From Paratinospora sagittata (lineage: Eukaryota; Streptophyta; Magnoliopsida; Ranunculales; Menispermaceae), in the NCBI GenBank assembly GCA_035771175.1, contig CM069603.1, forward strand, positions 28,488,308 through 28,552,307: a stretch of DNA of 64,000 nucleotides, read 5' to 3'. The position numbers and the translations under genes are program-made. Positions 8,723-64,000 of the stretch are shown piece by piece. The notes under the pieces are model-generated. The model had not been told where the DNA came from. It worked only from the letters and a program-made list of their open reading frames with translations, and did no database searches. Each line of letters begins with the position of its first letter. Within the stretch, counting starts at the first letter, position 1.

Positions 8723-8950
8723 TTTTGGCCCAGTATTATAGTCCAAGAGGGGGGGTGAATTGGACTTGGCAAATTTTCGCGTTACTTTTCTAATATTTTA
8801 ATTAAACAAGTAATGTGAGCAGTCAGTAACAATCCAAATAACAAGTGCAGGAAAATAAATGAACACAAATGGTTTAGAGTGGTTCGATTCCCCTTAAATC
8901 TACATCCACTACCCAATCACACCGATCAGGATTTCTCAATCCACTATTGG

Positions 8951-9170
8951 CTAATCACTTATGGGCGGATTAGAAGTCATTTACACTAACCAACACCAGG
9001 GCCTGGTTAACAACCACTACAACGCTAACCTACACAAGGGCTTGGTTAGAAAGTCACAATCTAGCCTACACTAGGGCTTGGCTAGTAAGCCACAACTTGC
9101 AACCAACTTACGGGCGTGGTTACTTGCCGTACAAATAAGGTAATATCCCGGTTGACTTAACCAAGTCAAC
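8951..9170. repeat. Tandem covarying stem-loops (array A) in LTR E
   Basis: At a period of about 36 bp the arms are CTAATC/GATTAG (8951/8968), TAACC/GGTTA (8987/9005), CTAACC/GGTTAG (9025/9044), CTAGCC/GGCTAG (9061/9080) and a weak AACC/GGTT (9101/9118). The loops stay alike, each holding GGGC preceded by 'aca..a' or 'cttat'. The last hairpin is GTTGACTT-aacc-AAGTCAAC (9151-9170). Changes occur on both arms together. Confidence 0.85.
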
Positions 9171-10060
9171 AATGCATCAAGATTACAAAGATATAGAGAA
9201 GTGTATGACAACACTCTCAACAATTTAAGCTTACAATCTTGAATGAGACAACAATCACTATTCCAACCACTATGATTCTAAATGATGCAAAGTGTTGAAA
9301 TATGTTTTTGTCAAATGCATTCGATTCAAATATATGTGATGTAAAACAGTGAATCGAATATGCACAACTATCAAGATATTGATTCTAAATAACAATAAGT
9401 TTAAAGCTCAATAATCAATATAACATGATGATCAAAACTTGATGATTCTAAATATATATGTGATGAAGATCAAGAATCAAATAACTCAAGTATGATAAAA
9501 AACTTTGATTCAATATAATATGATATTAGCACGTGAATCGAAATCTCAAACTATTCATGAAACCACTAAACAATGAAATATGTTATGAAGATCAAGATAG
9601 GGTTTCACAAAAACAATCAATACAAAATCAGTTTTAAAGATTATAATCTAAGTACAAAAATTGATTTGCATAAACCAAAATCACAAGAATCTAGTTGTAG
9701 AAATGTATACCCCACTCGGGAAGGTTGAAGCACCAAGATTCTTCTTGTGTGAAGTTGGATGCGAGAAATCATGATCAAGACTCAAATAGAAGATGTAGAA
9801 ACACTTGAATCGTCTTGAACACTTGCACAAGAGAAACTCTCCAAGTTTCTCAAGGTTTTGAAAGATGTGGAGAACTATTCGGAAGATTGGATCAAATGAT
9901 CAAATGTTGTTGAACTTTTGCTTTCAAAGAAGGATTAAATGACTCAAGAACTTGTTGTTGGCTTGTAAAAAGACTTAGACGAAAAATACACAAGTTCTCT
10001 GGATTTTGCAAAAGTTGCTCTTCAAATGTGATATTTATAGATAAACACTATACCAAGGCA

Positions 10061-10416
10061 CAGGAATGCGTTCCTTAACATAGGAGTGCGTTTCTGGTCT
10101 GAAATTTGAAAATTTTTAGATTTTCCTTCCAATTAAGGAGCGCATTCCTTACTTAAGGAGCGTTTTCCTCAATATGTCCGTTGGGCATAGGAACGGGTTC
10201 CTTCAATAAGAACCACTGACTCTTAAATTTTTTCTATTTTACCCTTGGCAACAAGAACACGTTCCTCCTTTAAAGAGTGCGTTCCATTTTCCTGATCAAA
10301 AAAATTCTGAGTCTCGGGAAAAGCCACAGGAATGCGTTCCTCTTACAAGGAACATGTTCCTTAAACCCTAATAAAAAAAATACTAAGTCTCGGGAAAAAG
10401 CTCAGGAGCGCGTTCC
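10061..10416. repeat. Array of ten GCG-centred palindromes (array B) in LTR E
   Basis: About ten imperfect copies of the palindrome AGGA(A/G)(C/T)GCGTTCCT lie in 360 bp: for example AGGAATGCGTTCCT (10061), AAGGAGCGCATTCCTT (10135), AAGAACACGTTCCT (10252), AAGGAACATGTTCCTT (10347) and AGGAGCGCGTTCCTT (10403). Several are perfect dyads although their cores differ. The spacers show no common sequence. Confidence 0.85.
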
Positions 10417-11043
10417 TTCATTGACAAGTGCAAAAGACTTGATTTTTTATCATTTTAGGTTTAGGACATTGTCAAAAACATAGACTAATATTTTAAAAAC
10501 ATTTTAAATTTTTTTGGCACGATTAAGGTACAATTAACATAGTTAAAACATGAGTAGTTTAATCGATTAAACCAATGATAAAAGCAATAAATACAAAACA
10601 TGTGAAACAATAAAACCATGCAAAGTTGACAAGTTGACTGCATGTTAAACATTGATCAATATATGTATGATAAACAATTGTGACTAAGTGATAACATAAT
10701 TATCAAACTAATATGAATGCATGCATGATTAATCATATAATAATGTATATGAATGAGTGTATTAAACTATATGAATGATTTTTAAAAAGATGCAAATCAT
10801 GTGTGGTTGGAACAAGTAAAAGTCACTTTACAACACTAAGATTCTAGTAAAGAAATACAACCATAAAGCTCTTGAATCTTCGTGAAGTATTGTTCCTTCC
10901 ACATGCTTTGACATTACAGTTGAACCCATTAGAGATATCTAGTTAGCACTGAAACAACTACGTCAAAGAGATTAGATAACACATGTATGTTGTTTGCAAT
11001 CATCGAAACAAAAATGGCTGAGAGTAGTTACATCAACAGAGGA

Positions 11044-24214: not shown

Positions 24215-24523
24215 TGTAGAATTATAGAGAGATCTATGTTTGAGGATCTGTTAGCAATATTAGGGGCTAATATCGAGGAGATCTACAGCTAACAGATCAG
24301 TTTTTTCTTATTCCATGAATTTAGGAGATTTGGTAGTCTGTTACCAAATCTGTAGATATAAGTTTCCTGTTTTATAGCTTTCAATTTTAGGTAGTTCTGA
24401 TTTCCTTTCTAGATTAGCTGTAAATATCCCTAAAATAGATGAGGATTATCATCTATATAAAGAGGGGCCTGTAACCTTCTTTTGGTGATAGTGGAAAATT
24501 ACTCTTTCCTTCCACAAACAAGA
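24215..24523 (+). mobile_element. Copia element G, 5' LTR, 309 bp
   Basis: Begins TGTAGAATTA and ends ACAAACAAGA. It differs from the 3' LTR at 7 of 309 positions by direct comparison (about 2.3%), which implies a fairly recent insertion. The LTR ends in GA in both copies instead of the usual CA. A TATA box (TATATAAAG, 24454-24462) is followed by a GC-rich start-site region. The short LTR and the gag type suggest the Ale lineage. Confidence 0.93.
24454..24462 (+). promoter_or_regulatory. TATA box in the 5' LTR of copia G
   Basis: TATATAAAG lies about 60 bp before the LTR end; the 3' LTR has the same box at 29293. It would place transcription start near 24485-24490. Confidence 0.65.
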
Positions 24524-24535
24524 TGGTATCAGAGC
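24524..24535 (+). other. Primer-binding site of copia G
   Basis: TGGTATCAGAGC follows the LTR with no gap, a perfect initiator-tRNA-Met complement of the kind used by most plant copia elements. Confidence 0.88.
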
Positions 24536-24560
24536 AATCTCTGAACCCTAATTCCCTCAT

Positions 24561-27500
24561 ATGACCAAATACGGGAAACATGATTCAAGAGCTACCGTTT
24601 CCCAAATCTCCTCCAATCAGGAAGCCATGGCTTCCAACAATGACAGTAACCTCATGCCCATTACAGGACACAAACTGAATGGGAACAACTATCTCCAATG
24701 GTCCCATTCCGTAATGATTTTCATATGCGAAAAGGGCAAAGATGATTATCTCACCGGAGATGCTACCAAACCAAACAAGACGGATGAAAAGTTCAAAGTC
24801 TGGAATGCTGAGAATAATATGGTCATGTCATGGCTCATTAATTCCATGACAAATGACATTGGAGAAAACTTTCTTCTCTATGGAACAACAAAGGAGATTT
24901 GGGATGCTGCCAAGGAAATATATTCTAACAATGAGAATACATCGGAATTATTCGAGGTGGAAAGTGTTCTTCATGAGTTCCGCCAAGGAGAATTAACTGT
25001 GACTCAATACTTCAACACTCTCAATCGGTATTGGCAGCAGCTAGACTTATTAGAGGAGCACAATTGGAGCTGTTCGAATGATGGAATCAAGTATAGACAA
25101 ATAATTGAACGGAAAAGAATATACAAATTTTTGATTGGATTAAATAAGAACCTTGATGAAGTACGAGGAAAAATTTTAGGATCCAAACCACTACCAAATA
25201 TCCGAGAAGTTTTTTCAGAAGTTCGGAGAGAGGAAAGTTGAAAGAAGATCATGTTGGGATCTCAAGATTCTGTGACAAATCCTGAGAGTTCAGCACTCGT
25301 GGTGAGAGGAAATCCATCCAACAACAACGATCACAGACCAAAGAAAGGGCGACCATGGTGTGATCATTGTCGACGTCATGGTCACACCAAGGACAACTGC
25401 TGGAAGATTCACAGCAAACCAGCAGACTGGAGACCTTCCCGGTTTGCCAATGACAAAAAAGGACGAGGCAACCTTGCTTCCATGAATGAACAACCTCCAC
25501 CCGAACCAACTCCCTTCAGCAAGGAACAAATAGAGATCTTGCAGAAAATGTTCAACCAATCCTTGCCTGCACCAGCTCCCACTGTGGTTGGTACCGGATC
25601 CCTAGCACAAAAAGGTCATTTTTTAAGTGCTCTAAATGCTAACAAGGAGAGGCTCAGTCCATGGATTATAGACTCAGGAGCTTCTGATCATATGACTGGA
25701 GATGAGAAGCTGTTTTCAACTTACACCCCATGCTATAAAAATTTAAATGTGCGAATAGCTGATGGGTCACTCTCAAAGGTGGCTGGTACAGGCTCGGTTC
25801 AAATTTCAGAGAGCATCACTCTTGATTCTGTTCTACTTGTACCAAAATTAAATTGCAATTTACTGTCCATTAGTAAACTCACTCGGGATCTCAACTGTGT
25901 TACTAAATTTGGCTCAAATCTGTGTGAATTTCAGGTCTTGGACTTGGGGAAGACGATTGGCAGTGCTAAGATGTGTTCGGGGCTCTATCTTCTAGAGGTT
26001 AATGATTCTCCTCAAGGAGCAATTCATCAATCAGATTGTTCAGTGTCTAGAAGTCTTGTTTCTTTGTCTGTGAGTCAGTATAATAATGATAGTGCAATTA
26101 TGTTATGGCACTATAGGTTAGGTCATCCAAATTTCTTGTATCTTGAGAAGTTGTTTCCTTCATTATTCCATAATAAAAACCCAAATAAATTTCAATGTGA
26201 GATCTGTCAATTCTCTAAACGTATTCGCAATTCTTATCCTAACAGACCCTACAAAGCATCTCAACCTTCTTCCATGATTCATAGTGATATATGGGGTCCT
26301 TCTAGGATAAAAAAATGTTACTGGTTCTCGCTGGTTCATTTCATTTATTGATGATCACACTAGACTCACATGGGTATTCCTCATGAAAGAAAAATCCGAG
26401 GCAAACCAGATATTCAAAACCTTCAATACTATGATCCAAACACAATTCCAAGCAAAAATTCAAATTCTGAAAACTGACAATGCCAAAGAGTATTTCAATT
26501 CCAGCCTTAATGATTATCTCATGAGTCATGGTATTGTTCACCAAAGTTCATGTGTTAACATTCCTCAGCAAAATGGTATTGCCGAAAGAAAAACCCAGCA
26601 TCTTCTTGATGTGGCTCGGTCTCTTATGTTCTCTACCCATGTACCAAAATATTTCTGGGGTGAAGCGATCCTTACTGCTACATACCTCATAAATAGGATG
26701 CCATCTCGGATTCTTAACTTCCAGACTCCCTGTCAAATCCTCCTTCAGTCCTTTCCCACTACTCGTCTCATCTTCCCCATCCCATTCAAAGTTTTCGGGT
26801 GTTCAACTTTTGTCCATGTCCATCAACAACACCAGGACAAACTTGATCCTAGAGCTCATAAATGTATTTTCCTTGGGTACTCTCCAACTCAAAAAGGATA
26901 TAAATGCTACTCACCGGTCACTAAACAATTCTATCACTCCATGAATGTCACCTTCTTTTAGCAACAACCTTATTTCCCCAAATCTGATATTCAGGGGGAG
27001 ACTAATTTTATCCTAAAATATCAGCTTTGGGATATTGAAGAATCACCTCATGTCTCCCCTAATTCTGACCAAACCTGCCCATCACTAAATCATGAATCAC
27101 TTCCTCCTCAAAACCTCTCCCTTGAGTCTTCTTACTTCCTAGAACCTCCTACTCAAGATCAAGCCAACAATCCACCTCAAAATCTGGACACACCTCAAAA
27201 TCTGGACACTATTCAATCACTAAAGAGTGATGAATTGATTACCTACTCAAGGAGGAGAAAGAACCAAAAGGAGATGGAACAACAAGCATCTCTTGAGCAA
27301 ACCCAAGAGTCTGACTCAAGTTCTAGACCAAGTGAAGATCCACCAGGTAACACTAATCCTGAAACTAATGATGACAGTGGCCTTCCTATTGCTGTGAGAA
27401 AAGGGGTAAGATCATGCACAAAACATGTGATATACACATTTGTGTCATATGAAGGATTGTCACCAAAGTTCAAAGCTTTTGTTGCCAACCTCGACAACAT

Positions 27501-29046
27501 CCAAGTTCTTAATAATATACAAGAAGCTCTCGGCTCACCAGAATGGAAATCAGCAGTGTATGAAGAAATTCATGCACTAGAGAAAAATGGAACTTGGGAA
27601 ATCTCTGACTTACCAACCAAGAAACGCCCAGTAGGCTGCAAATGGATCTTCATAGTAAAATATAATGAAGATGGGAGTGTTAATCGGTTCAAGGCACGGC
27701 TGGTTGCAAAGGGATTCACCCAATCATATGGAATCGATTATGAGGAGACATTTGCTCCTATAGCCAAGTTAAACACAGTTTGGGTTTTATTATCTTTGGT
27801 TGCAAACCTTGACTGGCCTCTCCACCAACTAGATGTCAAGAATGCCTTTCTAAATGGGGACCTAACTGAAGAAGTGTACATGGAAATTCCCCCCGGATTC
27901 GAGACACAAACTACATGCAACAAGGTTTGTAAACTTAGGAGATCTCTATATGGGCTCAAGCAATCTCCAAGAGCTTGGTTTGAAAGATTCACAAAGGTAG
28001 TGAAGAAGCATGGCTACTCTCAATGTCAGACGGACCATACACTATTTGTTAAACACTCTTCTGCAGGAAAACTTGTTGTCCTCATAATGTATGTGGATGA
28101 CATAATCCTAACAGGAGACTATGAAGAGGAAATCTGCACCATCAAAAGTTTACTAGCTGCAAAATTTGAAATCAAGGACCTTGGGAATCTTAAATATTTC
28201 CTAGGTATGAAGATTGCAAGGTCAAGAAAGGGAATCTCTGTCTCACAGAGAAAATATGTCCTAGATTTCTTAAAAGAGACTGGAATGCTCGGGTGTAAGC
28301 CGGCAGATACTCCTATGGATCCAACTATTAAACTAGGAGCTAAGGAAAATTGTGCACCCGTGAACAAAGGAAGATACCAAAGATTAGTAGGTAAACTAAT
28401 ATACCTATCTCACACACGACCAGACATTGGATTTGCTGTTAGCATGGTAAGTCAGTTCATGAACAATCCAAATGAAGAACACATGGAAGTTGTGTATAGA
28501 ATCCTGAGATATCTGAAACTAACACCAGGTAGAGGATTATTTTTTGAGAAGAACCAAAGAAGAGATATTGAAGTGTTCAGCGATGCAGATTGGGCAGGAT
28601 CAGTACAAGACCGAAGATCAACTTCAAGATATTGCACTTTTGTGTGGGAAAATCTGGTCACTTGGAGAAGTAAGAAGCAGTTAGTGGTGTCAAGAAGCAG
28701 TGCAGAAGCTGAATTCTGGGCAATGGCACACGGTATTTGTGAGGGAATTTGGTTAAAAAGGGTGTTAAAGGAATTAAAAATTTCAGATGAAGAACCTATG
28801 AAAATGTTTTGGGATAATCAATCAGCAATCAGCATTGCCAAAAATCCAGTTCATCATGATAGAACAAAACATGTGGAAATTGATCGACATTTTATAAAGG
28901 AGAAGATAGAGGAAGGAATAATCAAGATGTTGTACGTGCCTACATGTCTTCAGACAGCAGACATCCTTACCAAGGCTTTACCGAGAAAAGTGTTTGATGA
29001 TTTGAGTTCCAAGCTAGGGTTAATTAATATTTACCGCCCAACTTAA
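24561..29046 (+). pseudogene. Copia G gag-pol polyprotein, three lesions
   Basis: One frame originally encoded Gag (NGNNYLQWSHSV; CCHC knuckle CDHCRRHGHTKDNC at 25354-25395), protease (WIIDSGASDHMTG, catalytic DSG intact), integrase (HHCC around 26109-26212; DNAKEYF; core Glu in NGIAERKTQ), RT (LVAKGFTQ, LDVKNAFLNG, catalytic YVDD near 28090) and RNase H (FSDADWAGS, VSRSSAEAEFWA) ending at TAA 29044-29046. Breaks: TGA at 25239-25241 after gag; a one-base frame change at the seven-A run 26309-26315 inside integrase; TAG at 26959-26961 after integrase. All catalytic residues I checked are present. The order protease-integrase-RT-RNase H is diagnostic of copia. It is unlikely to be autonomous now. 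Confidence 0.93.
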
Positions 29047-29053
29047 GGGGGAG
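29043..29053 (+). other. Polypurine tract of copia G
   Basis: AAGGGGGAG immediately precedes the 3' LTR start at 29054 and follows the pol stop codon. Confidence 0.88.
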
Positions 29054-29362
29054 TGTAGAATTATAGAGATATTTATGTTTGAGGATCTATTAGCAATATT
29101 AGGGGCTAATATCGAGGAGATCTACAGCTAACAGATCAGTTTTTTCTTATGCCATGAATTTAGGAGATTTGGTAGTCTGTTACCAAATCTGTAGATATAA
29201 GTTTCCTGTTTTATAGCTTTCGGTTTTAGGTAGTTCTGATTTCCTTTCTAGATTAGCTGTAAATATCCCTAAAATAGATGAGCATTATCATCTATATAAA
29301 GAGGGGCCTGTAACCTTCTTTTGGTGATAGTGGAAAATTACTCTTTCCTTCCACAAACAAGA
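29054..29362 (+). mobile_element. Copia element G, 3' LTR, 309 bp
   Basis: Same length as the 5' LTR with seven substitutions and no indels. The substitutions cluster in the first 35 bases (three) and are otherwise scattered. Confidence 0.93.
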
Positions 29363-31610: not shown

Positions 31611-32751
31611 AATTTAAGTTTTTTTAAAACAGGACGGTGAGGTAGTGTGCATGAAATAAAGACCGAAAACACATTTCACTTGCTCATTTTAGCAAGAACT
31701 AAAGGAAAGGAAAGGGGAAAAAAGGGAAACGTAGTTTTGAAGTGAAATCTTCGTCAAATCAATGTCGAGGTAAGTGTTTTCTTCAATTTAAAGCAGCCTT
31801 TCCTCCAGTGTAATTTTCAAAGCAGATGATGTTTTGGGTCATTTCCAACTTAGGGTTTCGGTGTTCTTGGTTGGAAATCGATTGAAAATGGTAGAATTAG
31901 TATTTCCTAGCCCAAATTACATAGAAATCATGTTTATTTAGGGTTTACACATCAAATTGAAGGTTGCATAGGTGAGAAACCCAATTTGATGGGTTGAACT
32001 AGCTGGAAAATGGTAGAATTGGGGTTGAGAACATGTGGAATTTAGATTGAATGTTAATTTTTACTATTTCTTAATGTTATGTGAATTGAAATTGGATTAG
32101 AAATGGAGTTAGTGGATTTCCAATGGTGGAAATAGTAAAAATGCTAAGAATTGTTAACCTATATGGTTCATCCTTAGCACATCCCTAAAGTATACTTGAT
32201 GAAGTATATTTTGATGATCACAAACAAAGTATTTTTTGGTGCTAATGAATGTTTTTCAAGAACTTATCTCTGCACCAAAGGAAAAGCAAAAAGCCAAAGA
32301 ACGACTAAATCAAGGAGCTCAAAGCTTACATCTAACGATCAAGCTCGCTTCAACTAATGGACTTCAACGATCACATCATGATTTCAAGATCACTTCTCTC
32401 GGACGTTTCGATCAAGCTTCAAGACTACATCTCTCGATCAACGTTCAAGTCATTCAACTCCGAATTACTCTTATTGAAGATCTCATAATGAAGAGTTGGA
32501 TTTAACGGTTATGAGAAAAGAGAAACACACAAAGTACTTAAGGTATATTTTTCTCTAATCGTTATTGCTCAAAATGTTTTTCAAAACCATGCATATATCA
32601 TTTTCATATGTTTTCTAAATCTGCATGTTTTGATGTCTTAACTATATTTCAAGAAATTTAATACTATATATGTAATCTGAAATATACCAAGTTTTTATTT
32701 GCATTTATCGAATATTTTATCGCCAGTCAAAATTGTTTTCAAAGAGTCTTT

Positions 32752-33450
32752 CAGGACGCTAAGCAGCGCTCTCCTGAACTTGTTAAGTCAAGACGCTGAT
32801 AGGTCATTAGGTCGCTGATAACGCTCAAGGTTGAAATGAACTGATTAATTAGGACGCTTACTTGTATAGTAGCGGTCTTATATATTAGTCAACCTCTGAA
32901 GTTGTCAGGAAGCTGACTCGGCATCAGCTCACTGAAAGATCTTTTAAAAGTTCTTCAAAGAATGTTTCTCTGAGGACGCTGATGGTTATAAGTTGATTAA
33001 ACTATCATGACGCTTTCTGGATAGGAGCGCCCTCACCTTTGGAAATCAACTAAATAACTTTCAAGATGATGATTGTCCTTCAGCGTGTTTTTAAATGTCT
33101 TAACTTGTAGGATGCTTACATAGTAGTAACGCCCTCATGTTATATTTTTATCTAGTAGGACGCTTACGTAATGTAGCGCCCTCATGTTTTGTTTTATGTT
33201 TTAAAAACATGACGTTTACTCGGATAGTAGTGCCTTCATGCACTTAATAATTTTAAAACATAGTTGGACTAGCGCCCTCAAGGTTTAAGTCGTCTAAAGT
33301 CATAAGTAAGTCAGGAAGCTTACGAGTTAGTAGTGCCCTCACTTAAGTGTTCAGCAAGATGTTTATACGTAGTAAGCGCCCTCAAGGAACAAAACAACAA
33401 AGTTGATATTATGCGTTAGGACACTTATTACGGAATCAGGATGCTAATTC
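32752..33450. repeat. GCG-type dyad array (array B) in LTR K
   Basis: About ten units of the form AGGACGCTTAC - 5 to 8 bases - GTAGCGCCCTC recur every 50-100 bp: for example AGGACGCT/AGCGCTCTCCT (32754), AGGACGCTTAC/GTAGCGGTCT (32851), AGGAAGCTGA/TCAGCTCACT (32908), AGGATGCTTAC/GTAACGCCCTC (33109), AGGACGCTTAC/GTAGCGCCCTC (33157) and AGGAAGCTTAC/GTAGTGCCCTC (33313). The arms are imperfect complements and vary between units. Confidence 0.8.
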
Positions 33451-34432
33451 AACTACCGTCACTGTTCGAATGAGTACACTACGTCAATTTACTTTTTCAG
33501 AACAGACACTTGCACAGAGTCCTTTTTAGACTTATCAGAGACCCTTTCTGATACATGAAAGAAGTTCTTCTAAAGCTTTCCTCTTTCATGAAATTTGAAA
33601 AGAACCAAAATGTTAGTGAAAATTGCAGTTGCTATTTTCATATAACATTCTAGTCGTTGTGTGAAAACGTTCACATTATTTGAATTTCAAATGTCTAACG
33701 GCTGTCCCACTAAGTCTATAAATACCAACACTTAGGACCAAACAACTTGTCAATCACTTTGTGTTGTGCCAATACTTTTGAAAGTTAGTCTGAGTCGAAA
33801 TGAATTTCATTTTCTAATATTTCAAAGTATTTTCACTGATACCTATACAATTTTCATATTGAGTTTCAAATATATTTCTATCTTTGAAAATTTGCTTTTA
33901 TATTGGTATCAACTCAAATTCTCAGCATTGATTCACATTTGGTATCATTATTGCTGATGATATAATTTGAGAAATAGTTCAAGATATACAGTTGTACTTG
34001 ATTTCATATTTTAAGTACTGTATGGAACTATATCAGTAGTAGCGTTAAACTACTGATCATTGAACCAGACGTTTTCATACTTATACTTTATATCTATTTT
34101 GAAATTGTCTGTGTTTTTGATTTACACCAGTCTTTAGCTTTATACGTCAATGTCTTATTGGTATTATATTGTCTTCGAAGAAGCTCTGATTTTCATATCA
34201 TATCATTCATGCTTTTCGAAACTGCACTTGAGCAATACCGAACATTGAAAGGTAAAGGACTGAAGGTGTATTTCAACTTAGCATTACCTACTTTTCATAT
34301 TTTTGTAATGCTACGTACTGTGCTTAATGTAAAGTGTTTTACTGCGTTAGAACCACCCAACATCTAAGTGTTATAATGCTGGTGTATTTCTGGATTGAAA
34401 CAACCAGGACAAGTGAAGGTAGTTTACTTGAT

Positions 34433-34998
34433 GATTTCAGGATTGAAATCAGGTAGGTTATCTCTTAGCCTTTAAAAGAGAAAACTGGTTCATCCTCATC
34501 TAGTCAAAGGGTAGGTGTGTCCTTAACCTTAACAATGATAGGTTATCTCTCAACCTTTAAAAGAGAAACTAGTTCGTCCTCATCCCGTAAAAGGATAGGT
34601 GCGTCCTCAACCAGTAAGAGGATATGTTATCTCTTAACCTATAACAGAGAAACAATTGTTCCTTATCCCGCAAAAGGATCATGGTTCTTCCTTAACCAAT
34701 AAAAGGAACATGGGTTTCTCCTCATCCTGGAAAAAGGAAATATGGTTCTTCCTTAGCCAGTAAAAGGAACATGGGTTTCTCCTCATCCAGGAAAAAGGAA
34801 ATTTGGTTCTTCCTTAGCCAGTAAAAGGAACATGGGTTTTCTCCTAATATCAAAAAGAAGAAAATGGTTCATCCTTAGCCCATAAAAGGATAGGTTTGCC
34901 TTTAACCTGTAAAAGGGCAGTTGTAACGATTTGGTTCTCACCCGTAAGAGAATCAGTTAGTGGATTGAGTAAATCCTAATCAGGAGATTAGGTAGTGG
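34433..34998. repeat. Tandem covarying stem-loops (array A) in LTR K
   Basis: Roughly 17 hairpins at about 30-bp spacing. Arms differ but pair: TCTCTT/AAGAGA (34461), TCCT/AGGA (34577), TCCTC/GAGGA (34604), TCTCT/AGAGA (34630), TTCCTT/AAGGAA (34687, 34748, 34809), TCCTT/AAGGA (34872), CCTTT/AAAGG (34899), TTCTC/GAGAA (34935), CCTAAT/ATTAGG (34976). The loop is near-constant, 'a(a/g)cc..taa'. The first hairpin is GATTTCA-ggat-TGAAATC (34433-34450). Three consecutive 61-bp double units (34682-34860) look like a recent tandem expansion. Confidence 0.87.
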
Positions 34999-36406
34999 AC
35001 GTAGGCTTGGCCGAACCACTATAAATATGTGTGTCAAACGTTTGCATTTTAGTCTGTGTTCTAATTTGCATCATGTTCCAATTAACTTATTTAAATCACT
35101 TAAGTTATTGGAAGACCTTTCTAAAATTAACCATTGCACCCAATTCACCCCCCTCGTGGGTGGACCAACAAGAATTGCATGAGAACGGAAAAAGAATATT
35201 GGGTATTTGTATTGATGTAAAGATAATAATGTGTGTAGGTTCTAATATGGGTGGTGGAGTGATTTGATAGTGTGGGAACTAACTTCTGGAGATTGTTGTG
35301 AGTAGAATTTTGGTTATATTGTTATTTATGTCATCCTATTATATTTGAATGCATGTTCATGTATGCTTATGAAAATGACATCGTGTAATTTAAAAAGGGA
35401 AAAACGCTTTAATAAATGTGAGTTGATACTAAACATGAATTACAAGAGAGTTTTATAAATCTTCAGTTGGTCATATGGAGGGGGTATTGTTTATTATTTG
35501 GCGGAGTCACATGATCAATATTGAGTTTATTCTCTGAAAGGTGCGGAGATAGACTTTTAACAATGTCATGGAAGCTCACGTTGGGGTATTAGGTGGACTC
35601 CATATTTATGACTATTGATGGTAGTTATTCCTGTCAATAATATTGAATGTGACACAAGGTTGAGGTTGAAAGGTGTTTCCATGGGTTATATGCTTAATGT
35701 AAACTTTGGGACACTTGTCACATCACTGGAATAAAGGTGAATAAGGCGTTATTTTAAGTTGCATCAATTATATGATAACTTGAATTTGCTATATATATTG
35801 TCATGCATTGTTTTATTTCATATCAAGGAGCATACATGCACACATGGGATGTTAGGTGTATAAATGATGATATAACTAGATTCTATCCATTGGGCACCGT
35901 TACCCCTTTCACATTTTTCAGGTCTTTCAGGAGTGGACAAAGGCAAGGGTGTAGCCAATTAGTAGGAACTGAAGCCTTGCCAAAAAATTCTATTTTAATA
36001 TAAGTGACTGATACAAGATGTATATATTTATTTTGCTACTTTGAATTATGTAAATATATATATCACCCTACACTTGTAATAGAAATAGATGCATGATTTT
36101 TTATGGAGTTCATGTTGGATAGAGATATTATCTAACATGGATGGTTATGACAGGTGTTTATTATTTTGTGGTGTAATGAAATTATGATGGAATATGGATG
36201 ATGGTTGATTTTGATTGTGATATTGGTGGATAATTGTATGGTTTACAAGGTTGAGGATGTGATAGATGGTCCATTTATAGGGGAGACTCTGTCCGAATTT
36301 GGTTGAGGCTTAACAGGGATCTAACGGTCTTATGATGGATAGGATGGTTAGATTTCTATGCCGGTCAGAACGCTCTTGGTGGGGTATGGGACGAGGGGTC
36401 CTGACA

Positions 36407-61633: not shown

Positions 61634-61860
61634 TGTTGGCCCAGATATGTCCAAAAGGGGGGTGAATTAGACACTTAGCAGATTTTAACCTTTCTTAGTA
61701 ATGTGCAGAATATTGAAAGCAGATTAAACAAAGTATAGCAAATAAATATAATAAATGTAAAAGAGACAATGCAATTAGGATTTATAATGGTTCGGCCTCG
61801 CTTACATCCACTACCTAACTCCCTAAGTTAGGATTTGTTCAAACTCCACTATGGATCTTA
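61634..61860 (-). mobile_element. Copia J: truncated second LTR (3' end only)
   Basis: About 225 bp nearly identical to 62582-62810, including GGCCCAGATATGTCC, the GGGGGGTGAATT block and the CCTAACT/AGTTAGG hairpin (61814). It is the downstream end of the 3' LTR. The rest of the 3' LTR and all of pol are deleted; the junction is a T-rich run at 61861-61877. Confidence 0.85.
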
Positions 61861-62764: not shown

Positions 62765-62954
62765 CCTAACCTCCTCAGTTAGGATTTGTTCAAACCCCAC
62801 TATGGATCTTCTTACCGGGTATAGATCACGCGTGTGATAACTACCATTTTTCAACATACGGGTGTGAGATGACCGTTTCTCAACTTACGGGTGTGAGAAG
62901 ACCGTTACAACTTTGAACAACACTTGCTCTAGCACAGTGACTAACCAGTCACTG
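62765..62954. repeat. Covarying stem-loops (array A) in LTR J
   Basis: CCTAAC-ctcctca-GTTAGG (62765-62783), an ATCA/TGAT dyad (62825), a weak unit with loop ACATACGGGTG (62850-62870), TTCTCA-acttacgggtg-TGAGAA (62877-62899) and CAGTGACT-aacc-AGTCACTG (62935-62954). The loop ACTTACGGG is also found in LTR E at 9107. Confidence 0.82.
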
Positions 62955-63639
62955 CAAACTGAATACAAGAAGAGATATGATTCCCTTTACTCAGAATCAA
63001 AGAGATATTTACAAAACTTTGAATTGAACCTTCTGTTACCATAAATTCAACAAGATATGTATGATGAAGTTAAGCTAGAAACTGGTTCAAAGAGCTTTTG
63101 TCTTCTTCAATGGATTTTGAAAATGATAAAGATGAAGATCAGTAAATCCAGAAGACTTGATGTTTTTCTTTCAAAATGATCGTATGTTGAAGCACAAAAA
63201 AAAGAAGACTAACTTTCAAAAGTTTTTCGCACAAGTGAAACCTGTTAATACATTTTTGAATGAATATCAGTTTTTGTATGATCCGTTGTGTTTCTGTTCT
63301 AAGGCAGCACATATATATATATAGAAATAACAGAGGTGCAATGGACTTGGAGAATTTTGGCGCTCTAGGTTATTTCAATTACAACATCTACATTCTTTCC
63401 CAAAATGGATCGATTCAGCTCTGTGCATATTTCGGCGATAACACCTGAATCATCTGATCATTTACGAAAAAAGAATGTTTTGATAAAATATAAGATTGTT
63501 CAAAAAGTTCTTAAAAAGTTGTTGTATGATTCAGAAAAGTTTTTGTATGGTTATGAAAAAGTAGGTTGTAATAGTGTCAGTGTCACAATAGTAACATTGT
63601 TGAATTAGAGTCTTGACGCATAATATCAACTTTGTCGTT

Positions 63640-63985
63640 TTGTTCCTTAAGGGCTCTCATGGATCATAAGCGTCTTGCTGAACATTGAAGTGAGGGCACT
63701 ACTAAATCGTAAGCGTCCTGACTTTGATGATTAAACTACTTAAATCATGAGGGCGCTACTCGACAGTTAGCGTCCTGTAATTTTGAAATAATATTAAGTG
63801 CGTTGAATGATAGTAAGCGTCCTGACAGTTATTAAGTTGATTCTAAGGATGAGGGCTCTCCTACACAATTAGTGTCCTGACAATTTTTCAACTTATATCT
63901 ATCAGTATCCTTAAAGATAGAAATCATTTAGAACTTAGAGACTTTTCAGTGAGCTGATGCTAGATCAGCGTCCTGACACCTTCAC
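63640..63985. repeat. GCG-type dyad array (array B) in LTR J
   Basis: Six units of the form GAGGGC.CTACT - spacer - AGTAAGCGTCCTGAC, the reverse complement of the K units: near 63650, 63692, 63749, 63805, 63851 and 63955. The one at 63749 (GAGGGCGCTACT/AGTTAGCGTCCT) is nearly symmetrical. Confidence 0.8.
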
Positions 63986-64000
63986 AGGTTGACTAAAGTG

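What the first reader, a model, noticed from the sequence alone, without database searches (positions are those of the whole stretch)
34433..34998. Tandem hairpins with compensatory stem changes in a copia LTR
About 17 consecutive units of LTR K each form a short hairpin. The stems differ (TCTCT/AGAGA, TCCTT/AAGGA, TCCTC/GAGGA, CCTTT/AAAGG, TTCTC/GAGAA, CCTAAT/ATTAGG) but both arms change together, while the loop keeps an 'a(a/g)cc..taa' consensus. Random decay of a tandem repeat would break pairing. Either structure is selected in the LTR RNA (packaging, dimerisation, translation or stability), or the array is produced by a mechanism that copies one arm onto the other. Known: plant copia LTRs carry cis elements near the LTR end. 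Not known to me: any description of covarying arrays there.
Basis: partly seen in the sequence, partly recalled or inferred. Interest (0 to 1): 0.88.

Follow-up and report, generated by a model that had tools for sequence, protein, structure and literature searches.

The report
Covarying hairpin array in Sirevirus LTR
A plant retrotransposon remnant carries, just in front of its predicted promoter box, 17 short hairpin-like repeats whose two arms tend to change together while the loop stays much the same; the pairing is likely kept because the strand folds, but what the folding would do is untested.

Summary
A solo Ty1/copia LTR (32152-35170) has a 17-unit array at 34455-34953 with 6-bp arms around an A(A/G/T)CC..TAA-like loop. 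Own arms form 85 of 102 Watson-Crick cells against 54 +- 8.5 under a tree-based null (0 of 2000); on an unfitted alignment 83.3% of cells pair against 71.9% in shuffles (0 of 500). Shared ancestry alone does not give this. LTR B and, more weakly, LTR A in the same window have hairpins with unrelated arms and CCC-type loops. Of three single-copy helices shared by the LTRs, two have compensatory arm changes. Palindrome arrays upstream of the TATA box are described for Sireviruses (PMC2829016), mostly as near-identical CGG-CCG boxes in CpG islands; core and CpG island are absent here. Hence a new variant of a known kind. That RNA is the folded strand is not shown: G.U and A.C mismatches are about equal in the array (6 v 8), folding energy is ordinary on + (z -1.24) and modestly low on - (z -2.42). 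A spacer-loop pseudoknot has no covariation support. No relatives outside the window were reached.

The parts
32152..35170 (+). Solo LTR K (3019 bp), TG...CA, flanked by the 5-bp duplication AGAAT (32147-32151 and 35171-35175)
   Evidence: ends, duplication; sequence; no primer binding site follows the 3' end; solo LTR is inferred from that
34455..34953 (+). Proximal array, 17 units. Hairpin spans: U1 34461-34481, U2 34492-34512, U3 34519-34539, U4 34546-34566, U5 34576-34596, U6 34603-34623, U7 34630-34650, U8 34659-34679, U9 34688-34708, U10 34718-34739, U11 34749-34769, U12 34779-34800, U13 34810-34830, U14 34840-34861, U15 34871-34891, U16 34898-34918, U17 34934-34953
   Evidence: higher-order periods of 84 and 61 bp
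34975..34992 (+). TATA-proximal hairpin H18, CCTAATC agga GATTAGG
   Evidence: counterparts in three other LTR rows, with compensatory differences
34993..35021 (+). Inverted repeat across the conserved TATA block: TAGTGG / CCACTA with inner GGC / GCC (35004-35012)
   Evidence: the outer 5' arm is the same in all four rows, so the outer helix shows no compensatory change
35019..35026 (+). TATA motif CTATAAAT of the inferred promoter
   Evidence: promoter role taken from PMC2829016, not tested here
35137..35162 (+). Hairpin with the poly-C 'integrase signal' in its loop, CACCCA attcacccccctcg TGGGTG
32753..33450 (+). Distal array in the same LTR: ten AGGACGCT-like left arms, about half of them with a clear A(G/A)(C/T)GCC(C/T)TC right arm; CpG near expectation (25 v 26.5)
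   Evidence: (pattern matches, CpG)
62765..62899 (-). LTR A (5' LTR of a copia element): hairpins TTCTCA cacccgtaagt TGAGAA (62899), ATCTCA cacccgtatgt TGAAAA with 4 of 6 pairs (62870), TTATCAC acgc GTGATCTA (62840), H18 counterpart (62783)
8912..9123 (-). LTR B: five hairpins with CCC-type loops and different arms (9123, 9085, 9049, 9011, 8973) and H18 counterpart (8930-8912)
8723..11038 (-). LTR B, solo-like, duplication TCCTC (11043-11039 and 8722-8718), inside another retroelement
   Evidence: its end reads AA, not CA; beside it an ORF with Pfam PF08284 retroviral aspartyl protease

Best explanation
A Sirevirus-type LTR carries, upstream of its TATA motif, a 17-unit tandem array of short inverted repeats whose arms tend to change together while the loop is mostly kept, and the units likely work as hairpins in the U3 part at the 3' end of the element's RNA, where the repeated loop would be the binding site of a protein such as Gag. 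Shown: the array, pairing and covariation beyond ancestry, a kept loop core in K, hairpins of like design with other arms in LTR B and, more weakly, LTR A, and the place upstream of the TATA block. Inferred: that complementarity matters because one strand folds on itself (arm letters differ too much for one sequence-specific DNA-binding protein), that the strand is RNA, that U3 is transcribed from the 3' LTR, and that Gag or a host protein reads the loop many times over. The copy here is a solo LTR that is probably decaying, so the pairs seen would be the record of earlier selection blurred by later one-sided transitions. A side effect expected from the maize work is that such a region also feeds small-RNA production and silencing.
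For: Hand alignment of 17 units: 85 of 102 cells Watson-Crick, against 63.2 +- 4.1 in block swaps (0 of 10000), 53.9 +- 8.5 (tree from all columns) and 57.3 +- 6.8 (tree from columns outside the arms), 0 of 2000 each; compensatory co-changes 4 v 0.77 (fraction 0.0035) and 9 v 1.75 (0 of 2000). Unfitted MAFFT alignment: 0 of 500 shuffles for cells paired and covariation score, slides far lower; RNAalifold on it returns five of the six pairs unprompted. Eight divergent units that I picked: 41 of 48, reached by 4 of 40320 permutations, the true order included. Own arms 5.0 pairs, arms of neighbouring units 3.3 to 3.6, all other pairs 3.6. Four LTR B hairpins and one of LTR A (five of the eight listed): 30 of 30 and no other of the 120 orders as high. 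Single-copy helices in four LTR rows: 84 Watson-Crick, 6 G.U, 1 A.C, 1 other of 92 cells; H18 and the poly-C helix have compensatory differences, one poly-C pair being T-A, A-T or C-G. Sirevirus Gag is reported to have a CCHC RNA-binding knuckle (PMC2829016 passage).
Against: In the array G.U (6) does not outnumber C.A (8). Folding z-scores: K -1.24 (+) and -2.42 (-); B -0.07 (sense) and -1.27 (antisense); A +0.75 and -0.42. Five of the 17 K units folded alone give -3.9 to -9.3 kcal/mol, and the LTR B unit folded alone prefers other pairings than its own arms; the best fold of LTR B as a whole also replaces most unit hairpins. Pairings between neighbouring units compete. Two count measures are not raised, and plain co-changes are not raised on the first tree (4 v 3.0, fraction 0.35). 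The 6:1 G.U excess in the single-copy helices is not significant (0.125) and partly reflects two LTRs of one element; the outer TATA helix has no compensatory change. A covariance model of the K units does not find LTR A or B, so kinship of the units is by design and place only. No transcription or Gag binding was tested.
Confidence: 0.4

Rival explanations
1. DNA-level cis-regulatory palindromes: the array is a promoter-proximal version of the Sirevirus repeated motif, acting as an enhancer or as cruciform-forming DNA; RNA is not involved.
For: Place upstream of the TATA box and dyad symmetry as in the described motif (PMC2829016). No strand preference of mismatches in the array (6 G.U v 8 C.A).
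Against: Arm letters vary within one LTR, which does not suit one sequence-specific factor; no CGG-CCG core, and CpG is depleted (6 against 20.6 expected).
Confidence: 0.27
2. Arm copying: reverse transcriptase or repair switches template within the imperfect palindrome and rewrites one arm from the other (quasi-palindrome correction, recalled), so pairing is a mutational product without selection.
For: Arms covary while mismatches of both kinds are about equal. U14 differs from U10/U12 by several letters in its 3' arm yet pairs 8 of 9 with its own 5' arm.
Against: Some differences are single pairs, not tracts (U15 against U9: outer A-T against T-A; U6: inner C-G where its relatives have T-A; rows); the loop core is kept; H18 and the poly-C helix covary across LTRs at fixed places.
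Confidence: 0.2
3. Tandem H-type pseudoknots: the spacer before each 5' arm (RGGTT) also pairs with the loop (AACCY), giving interleaved helices.
For: 75.6% of 78 cells paired against 50% or less when slid; five pairs, G.U counted, in U1, U4, U9, U11, U12, U13 and U16 (rows) and in one LTR B unit (GGCTT/AAGCC).
Against: No covariation support: 67 and 81 of 500 shuffles as high, tree nulls 0.066 to 0.21 with no co-change on any branch, block swap 0.15 and 0.065.
Confidence: 0.08
4. Artefact: shared ancestry of tandem units with pyrimidine/purine-rich arms gives apparent pairing.
For: Units derive from 84- and 61-bp higher-order duplications; cross-unit pairing is already 3.6 of 6; two count measures are not raised.
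Against: Tree-based nulls 0 of 2000 for Watson-Crick cells; divergent representatives 4 of 40320; hairpins in other LTRs.
Confidence: 0.05

Closest known systems
Sirevirus repeated motif (RM) boxes, Bousios et al. 2010, PMC2829016 (outline, abstract, sections 9, 12, 13, 19 and passages seen)
   Same: Many palindromic copies clustered in the LTR a short way upstream of a conserved TATA box; same context of poly-C signal and, in LTR A, ATTGG before a TATCAGA primer site.
   Different: By its Table 3 each element has one palindrome (identity 66.5 to 100%), with a CGG-CCG core in 12 of 13 and, by the consensus strings, few or no bases between the arms; most form CpG islands. Here arms differ between units, the loop between the arms (8 to 10 nt) is the kept part, there is no CGG-CCG core, and CpG is depleted.
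Palindrome-rich region of maize Sirevirus LTRs, Bousios et al. 2016 (Genome Res; not held; seen only through passages of PMC10760457 and PMC5311732, abstract recalled)
   Same: Palindromes with predicted hairpins in the regulatory part of the LTR, of high sequence variability.
   Different: The consensus cited for maize is one palindrome, CACCGGACNNNGTCCGGTG; arm covariation with a kept loop is not mentioned in the passages seen.
Tobacco Tnt1 U3 tandem repeats (mentioned in a passage of PMC3601003; Tto1 recalled)
   Same: Tandem repeats in U3 with a regulatory role.
   Different: Few, sequence-specific repeats; no covarying arms known to me.
Poly-C 'integrase signal' of Sireviruses, PMC2829016 section 13
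   Different: Here it lies in the loop of a hairpin whose arms differ between LTRs but pair; the sections and passages seen do not describe that.

Membership tests
Sirevirus LTR | Conserved TATA box region (cTATAA/TAT/AAg) | tested here: met
   CTATAAAT in K and LTR A, TTATAAAT in A3; degenerate CTCTAAAC in LTR B
Sirevirus LTR | Poly-C-rich signal near the LTR 3' end | tested here: met
   TTCACCCCCC(C) in K, A5, A3, B; in K the C-run ends 17 bp before the LTR end
Sirevirus LTR | LTR end CA / ATTGG / primer site TATCAGAGC | tested here: inconclusive
   LTR A reads CC / ATTGG / TATCAGAAC: spacer exact, one mismatch in the primer site, LTR end CC; K is a solo LTR and has no junction
Sirevirus LTR | copia-type Gag in the element | tested here: met
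   LTR A element: Pfam PF14223, E 9.7e-29. Not testable for K; K resembles LTR A at 81.6% over 163 bp and 70.8% over 312 bp
Sirevirus RM array | At least eight palindromic copies upstream of the TATA box | tested here: met
   17 units
Sirevirus RM array | CGG-CCG core in the arms (12 of 13 described elements) | tested here: not met
   no unit of the proximal array has it (arm lists)
Sirevirus RM array | Near-identical copies, commonly over 85% (range 66.5-100) | tested here: inconclusive
   mean column identity 62% over whole units, lower than any described value but a different measure
Sirevirus RM array | Array forms a CpG island (some described elements lack one) | tested here: not met
   CpG 6 against 20.6 expected
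Tandem H-type pseudoknots | Second helix crossing the first, with covariation | tested here: not met
   pairing frequent, covariation not above controls
Structured RNA under selection | Sense strand folds better than shuffles, and G.U is favoured over A.C | tested here: not met
   z -1.24, 11 of 100 shuffles as good; antisense z -2.42, 2 of 100; 6 G.U v 8 C.A

The most novel reading that the evidence does not exclude
Sirevirus LTRs are built from a string of stem-loops of one design, loop kept and stem free to change as long as it pairs: the promoter-proximal array, the hairpin before the TATA block, and the poly-C 'integrase signal', with a further inverted repeat spanning the TATA block itself. 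The array would be a multivalent set of loop-reading sites at the RNA 3' end for Gag packaging or host control, possibly as tandem pseudoknots, and the poly-C signal would act as a structure rather than as a sequence.
Probability: 0.25. Interest if true: 0.75.

Novelty: new variant of a known kind. Interest (0 to 1): 0.52.

Why it matters
Palindromes in Sirevirus LTRs have been read as protein-binding boxes or as small-RNA sources. If arms covary within single LTRs, pairing itself is the kept property, which moves the question from which factor binds to which strand folds. Sireviruses are a large part of some crop genomes (21% of maize B73, as cited in a passage of PMC10760457), so many copies exist on which the test can be made. 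Covarying arms around the poly-C signal would also give a long-noted LTR motif a structural meaning.

Tried and rejected
Pseudoknot reading (spacer GGTT with loop AACC): attractive by eye, kept only as a rival because covariation tests failed. Among hairpins elsewhere in the window 4.4% of 429 (+) and 3.0% of 434 (-) have a spacer-loop match of score 4.5 or more.

RNA stability as proof: z-scores not exceptional on the sense strands. Strand test by G.U against A.C: no preference in the array; 6 v 1 in single-copy helices, not significant. Leaving out the innermost pair of the array would raise the G.U share, but that choice is post hoc and I do not use it.

Covariance model of the K units: 23 matches up to E 10; 14 are array units, the 9 others lie elsewhere with E 0.09 or worse, none in LTR A or B; U3, U6 and U15 are not listed.

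Relatives outside the window: none in viral contigs by pattern or by Gag and RT protein, none in genome contigs by pattern, none in phages. None of these is a plant collection, so this says nothing about plants. The Gag search returned 7 proteins, 4 of Hibiscus cannabinus, 1 of Nicotiana tabacum, 2 unnamed; it gives no DNA. The same request to the genome search did not complete 11 times.

Print: searches showed no title or abstract start that describes covarying arms in LTR hairpins. Lists were capped (59: 15 of 145 shown; 84: 8 of 2,806), only an open-licence library was searched, and four papers were seen in part. So absence from print is not established.

Full report
What is there. The finding lies in a 3019-bp LTR (32152-35170) that begins TG, ends CA and is flanked by AGAAT on both sides. 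No primer binding site follows, so I take it as a solo LTR. The array runs from 34455 to 34953 and has 17 units spaced 27 to 37 bp apart (positions), organised in higher-order repeats of 84 and 61 bp. Each unit reads spacer (mostly RGGTT or TGGTT), 5' arm (six letters, mostly pyrimidines), loop (A(A/G/T)CCnnTAA-like) and 3' arm (six, mostly purines). An 18th hairpin (34975-34992) with an unrelated loop follows and abuts the TATA block.

Is pairing more than chance or ancestry? The stretch 34455-34998 holds 12 hairpins (stem 5 or more, loop 8-13) against 3.19 +- 1.54 in 400 dinucleotide shuffles and lies in the densest stretch of the window on both strands. This count is mixed: in the like scan, 7 of 12 are unit hairpins, 1 is the 18th, 4 are other pairings between neighbours. 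On a MAFFT alignment of 16 units that was not fitted to structure (U11 and U13 are identical and entered once), 83.3% of 96 cells pair against 71.9 +- 2.6% when 3' letters are dealt out anew (0 of 500), and at most 60.4% when the partner is slid; cells changed on both sides are 17 against 8.0 (0 of 500); but pairs with a change on both sides (4 v 3.6, 292 of 500) and further pair types (10 v 9.1, 194 of 500) are not raised. RNAalifold returns five of the six pairs from that alignment, with a weak energy of -1.6, of which -0.65 is covariation.

Because tandem units are related, I built trees of the 17 units from a hand alignment and re-placed each column's parsimony changes at random on the branches. 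Watson-Crick cells were 85 of 102 against 53.9 +- 8.5 (tree from all columns, largest 78) and 57.3 +- 6.8 (tree from columns outside the arms, largest 76), 0 of 2000 each. With G.U counted, 91 was reached in 0 and in 0.05% of simulations. Compensatory co-changes were 4 v 0.77 (0.0035) and 9 v 1.75 (0 of 2000). Plain co-changes were not raised on the first tree (4 v 3.0, 0.35) but were on the second (11 v 5.0, 0 of 2000). The trees rest on at most 29 columns and are poorly resolved, and the arm registers of U10, U12, U14 and U17 were set by me. Eight divergent units picked by me gave 41 of 48 pairs, reached by 4 of 40320 permutations, the true order included. Own arms pair at 5.0 of 6, arms of neighbours at 3.3 and 3.6, all others at 3.6, so pyrimidine/purine make-up explains part of the pairing, not its specificity.

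Is it confined to this LTR? Not by design. Two other LTRs of the same general type lie on the minus strand. LTR A is the 5' LTR of a copia element (Gag Pfam PF14223) with ATTGG/TATCAGAAC after its end; a piece at 61635-61859, 89.9% alike, is taken as its 3' LTR (row A3). LTR B (8723-11038) is solo-like with duplication TCCTC. LTR A has 3 hairpins of the scanned kind (0.69 expected, p 0.01), one of them the H18 counterpart; LTR B has 5 (0.99 expected, 0 of 400), all five with a CCC-type loop (0.15 expected) by a pattern chosen after seeing the loops. Their arms are unrelated to those of K: CTAGCC/GGCTAG, CTAACC/GGTTAG, TAACCA/TGGTTA, CTAATC/GATTAG, AACCA/TGGTT in B, TTCTCA/TGAGAA in A. A second LTR A unit pairs only 4 of 6. 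A covariance model of the K units finds neither LTR, so descent from one unit is not shown.

Single-copy helices. H18 before the TATA block pairs in all four rows (CCTAATC/GATTAGG; CCTAAC/GTTAGG; CCTAACT/AGTTAGG; CCTGATC/GATTGGG), with compensatory T-A against C-G differences. Arms around the poly-C signal pair in all four rows (CACCCA/TGGGTG; ATGTCCAA/TTGGACAT; TGTCTAA/TTGGACA; AGTCCAA/TTGGACT), with three pairs that differ on both sides between K and the others (for one of them row A3 has a G.U). The helix across the TATA block (TAGTGG with CCACTA, CTACTA, CCATTA or CCACTC) has an invariant 5' arm and so no compensatory change; two 3' changes give G.U and one breaks the end pair. Its inner helix is GGC/GCC in K and GATT/AATC in B. 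Of 92 cells, 84 are Watson-Crick, 6 G.U, 1 A.C, 1 other. Six pairs or more around a 12-14-nt loop has a chance of about 0.005 at a given spot. I chose these registers after seeing the sequence, and two rows belong to one element.

Which strand folds? In the array the non-Watson-Crick cells are 6 G.U, 8 C.A and 3 other, which one-sided transitions in a decaying copy could give on either strand. Folding z-scores are -1.24 (K sense), -2.42 (K antisense), -0.07 and -1.27 (B sense and antisense), +0.75 and -0.42 (A sense and antisense). So folding of the sense RNA is an inference from the design, not a result.

A second complementarity. The spacer RGGTT can pair with the loop AACCY; with the arm helix that would make an H-type pseudoknot. 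Pairing is frequent (75.6% of 78 cells), but covariation is not above shuffles (67 and 81 of 500) nor clearly above the tree nulls (0.066 to 0.21). It stays a lead.

What is known. Sireviruses are reported to carry palindromic repeated motifs in the LTR upstream of the TATA box, a conserved TATA region, a poly-C signal and the ATTGG/TATCAGAGC junction (PMC2829016: outline with abstract, sections 9, 12, 13 and 19, and passages). For maize, passages of PMC10760457 and PMC5311732 say that small RNAs map in excess to palindrome clusters with strong predicted structure; the 2016 paper itself is not held and its abstract is recalled. Passages of PMC3601003 describe Sire LTR models with a TATA motif and a short R and name no hairpin array. 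The array here shares place, copy number and symmetry with the repeated motif but lacks its CGG-CCG core and CpG island; its unit identity of 62% is below the described range but measured otherwise. The distal array of K (32753-33450) and the GGAACGCGTTCC-like palindromes of LTR B (10416-10074) resemble the described motif more closely in style, so these LTRs seem to have both kinds.

Verdict. A firm case of arm covariation in an LTR hairpin array, a new variant of a known kind. The likely mechanism, folded hairpins read by their loop at the RNA 3' end, has a confidence of 0.4; DNA-level palindromes and arm copying remain serious rivals. The decisive step, a family-wide alignment from plant genomes, could not be run here.

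Noticed in passing
32753-33450 (+) and 63600-64000 (-): A second, distal array of AGGACGCT...AGCGCCCTC-like inverted repeats in LTR K and, by similarity and by eye, LTR A; a frequent A.C mismatch on the + strand would be a G.U on the other strand.
   Followed up: partly
10416-10074 (-): LTR B has GGAACGCGTTCC-like palindromes upstream (9 of 11 pattern matches by my reading), close in style to the described Sirevirus repeated motif.
   Followed up: partly
35137-35162 (+), 62623-62596 (-), 61673-61648 (-), 8766-8740 (-): The poly-C signal sits in the loop of a hairpin whose arms differ between LTRs but keep pairing.
   Followed up: yes
34455-34998: CpG is strongly depleted in the proximal array (6 v 20.6 expected) but not in the distal array (25 v 26.5).
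   Followed up: no
17024 (-) and 23558 (-): An 11-bp perfect inverted repeat AGGAGCGCGCT / AGCGCGCTCCT in two copies of another repeat of the window.
   Followed up: no
24215-29362 (+): A copia element with 97.7% identical flanking repeats (24215-24523 and 29054-29362) and long ORFs between them (RVT_2), about 2.8 kb before LTR K.
   Followed up: no
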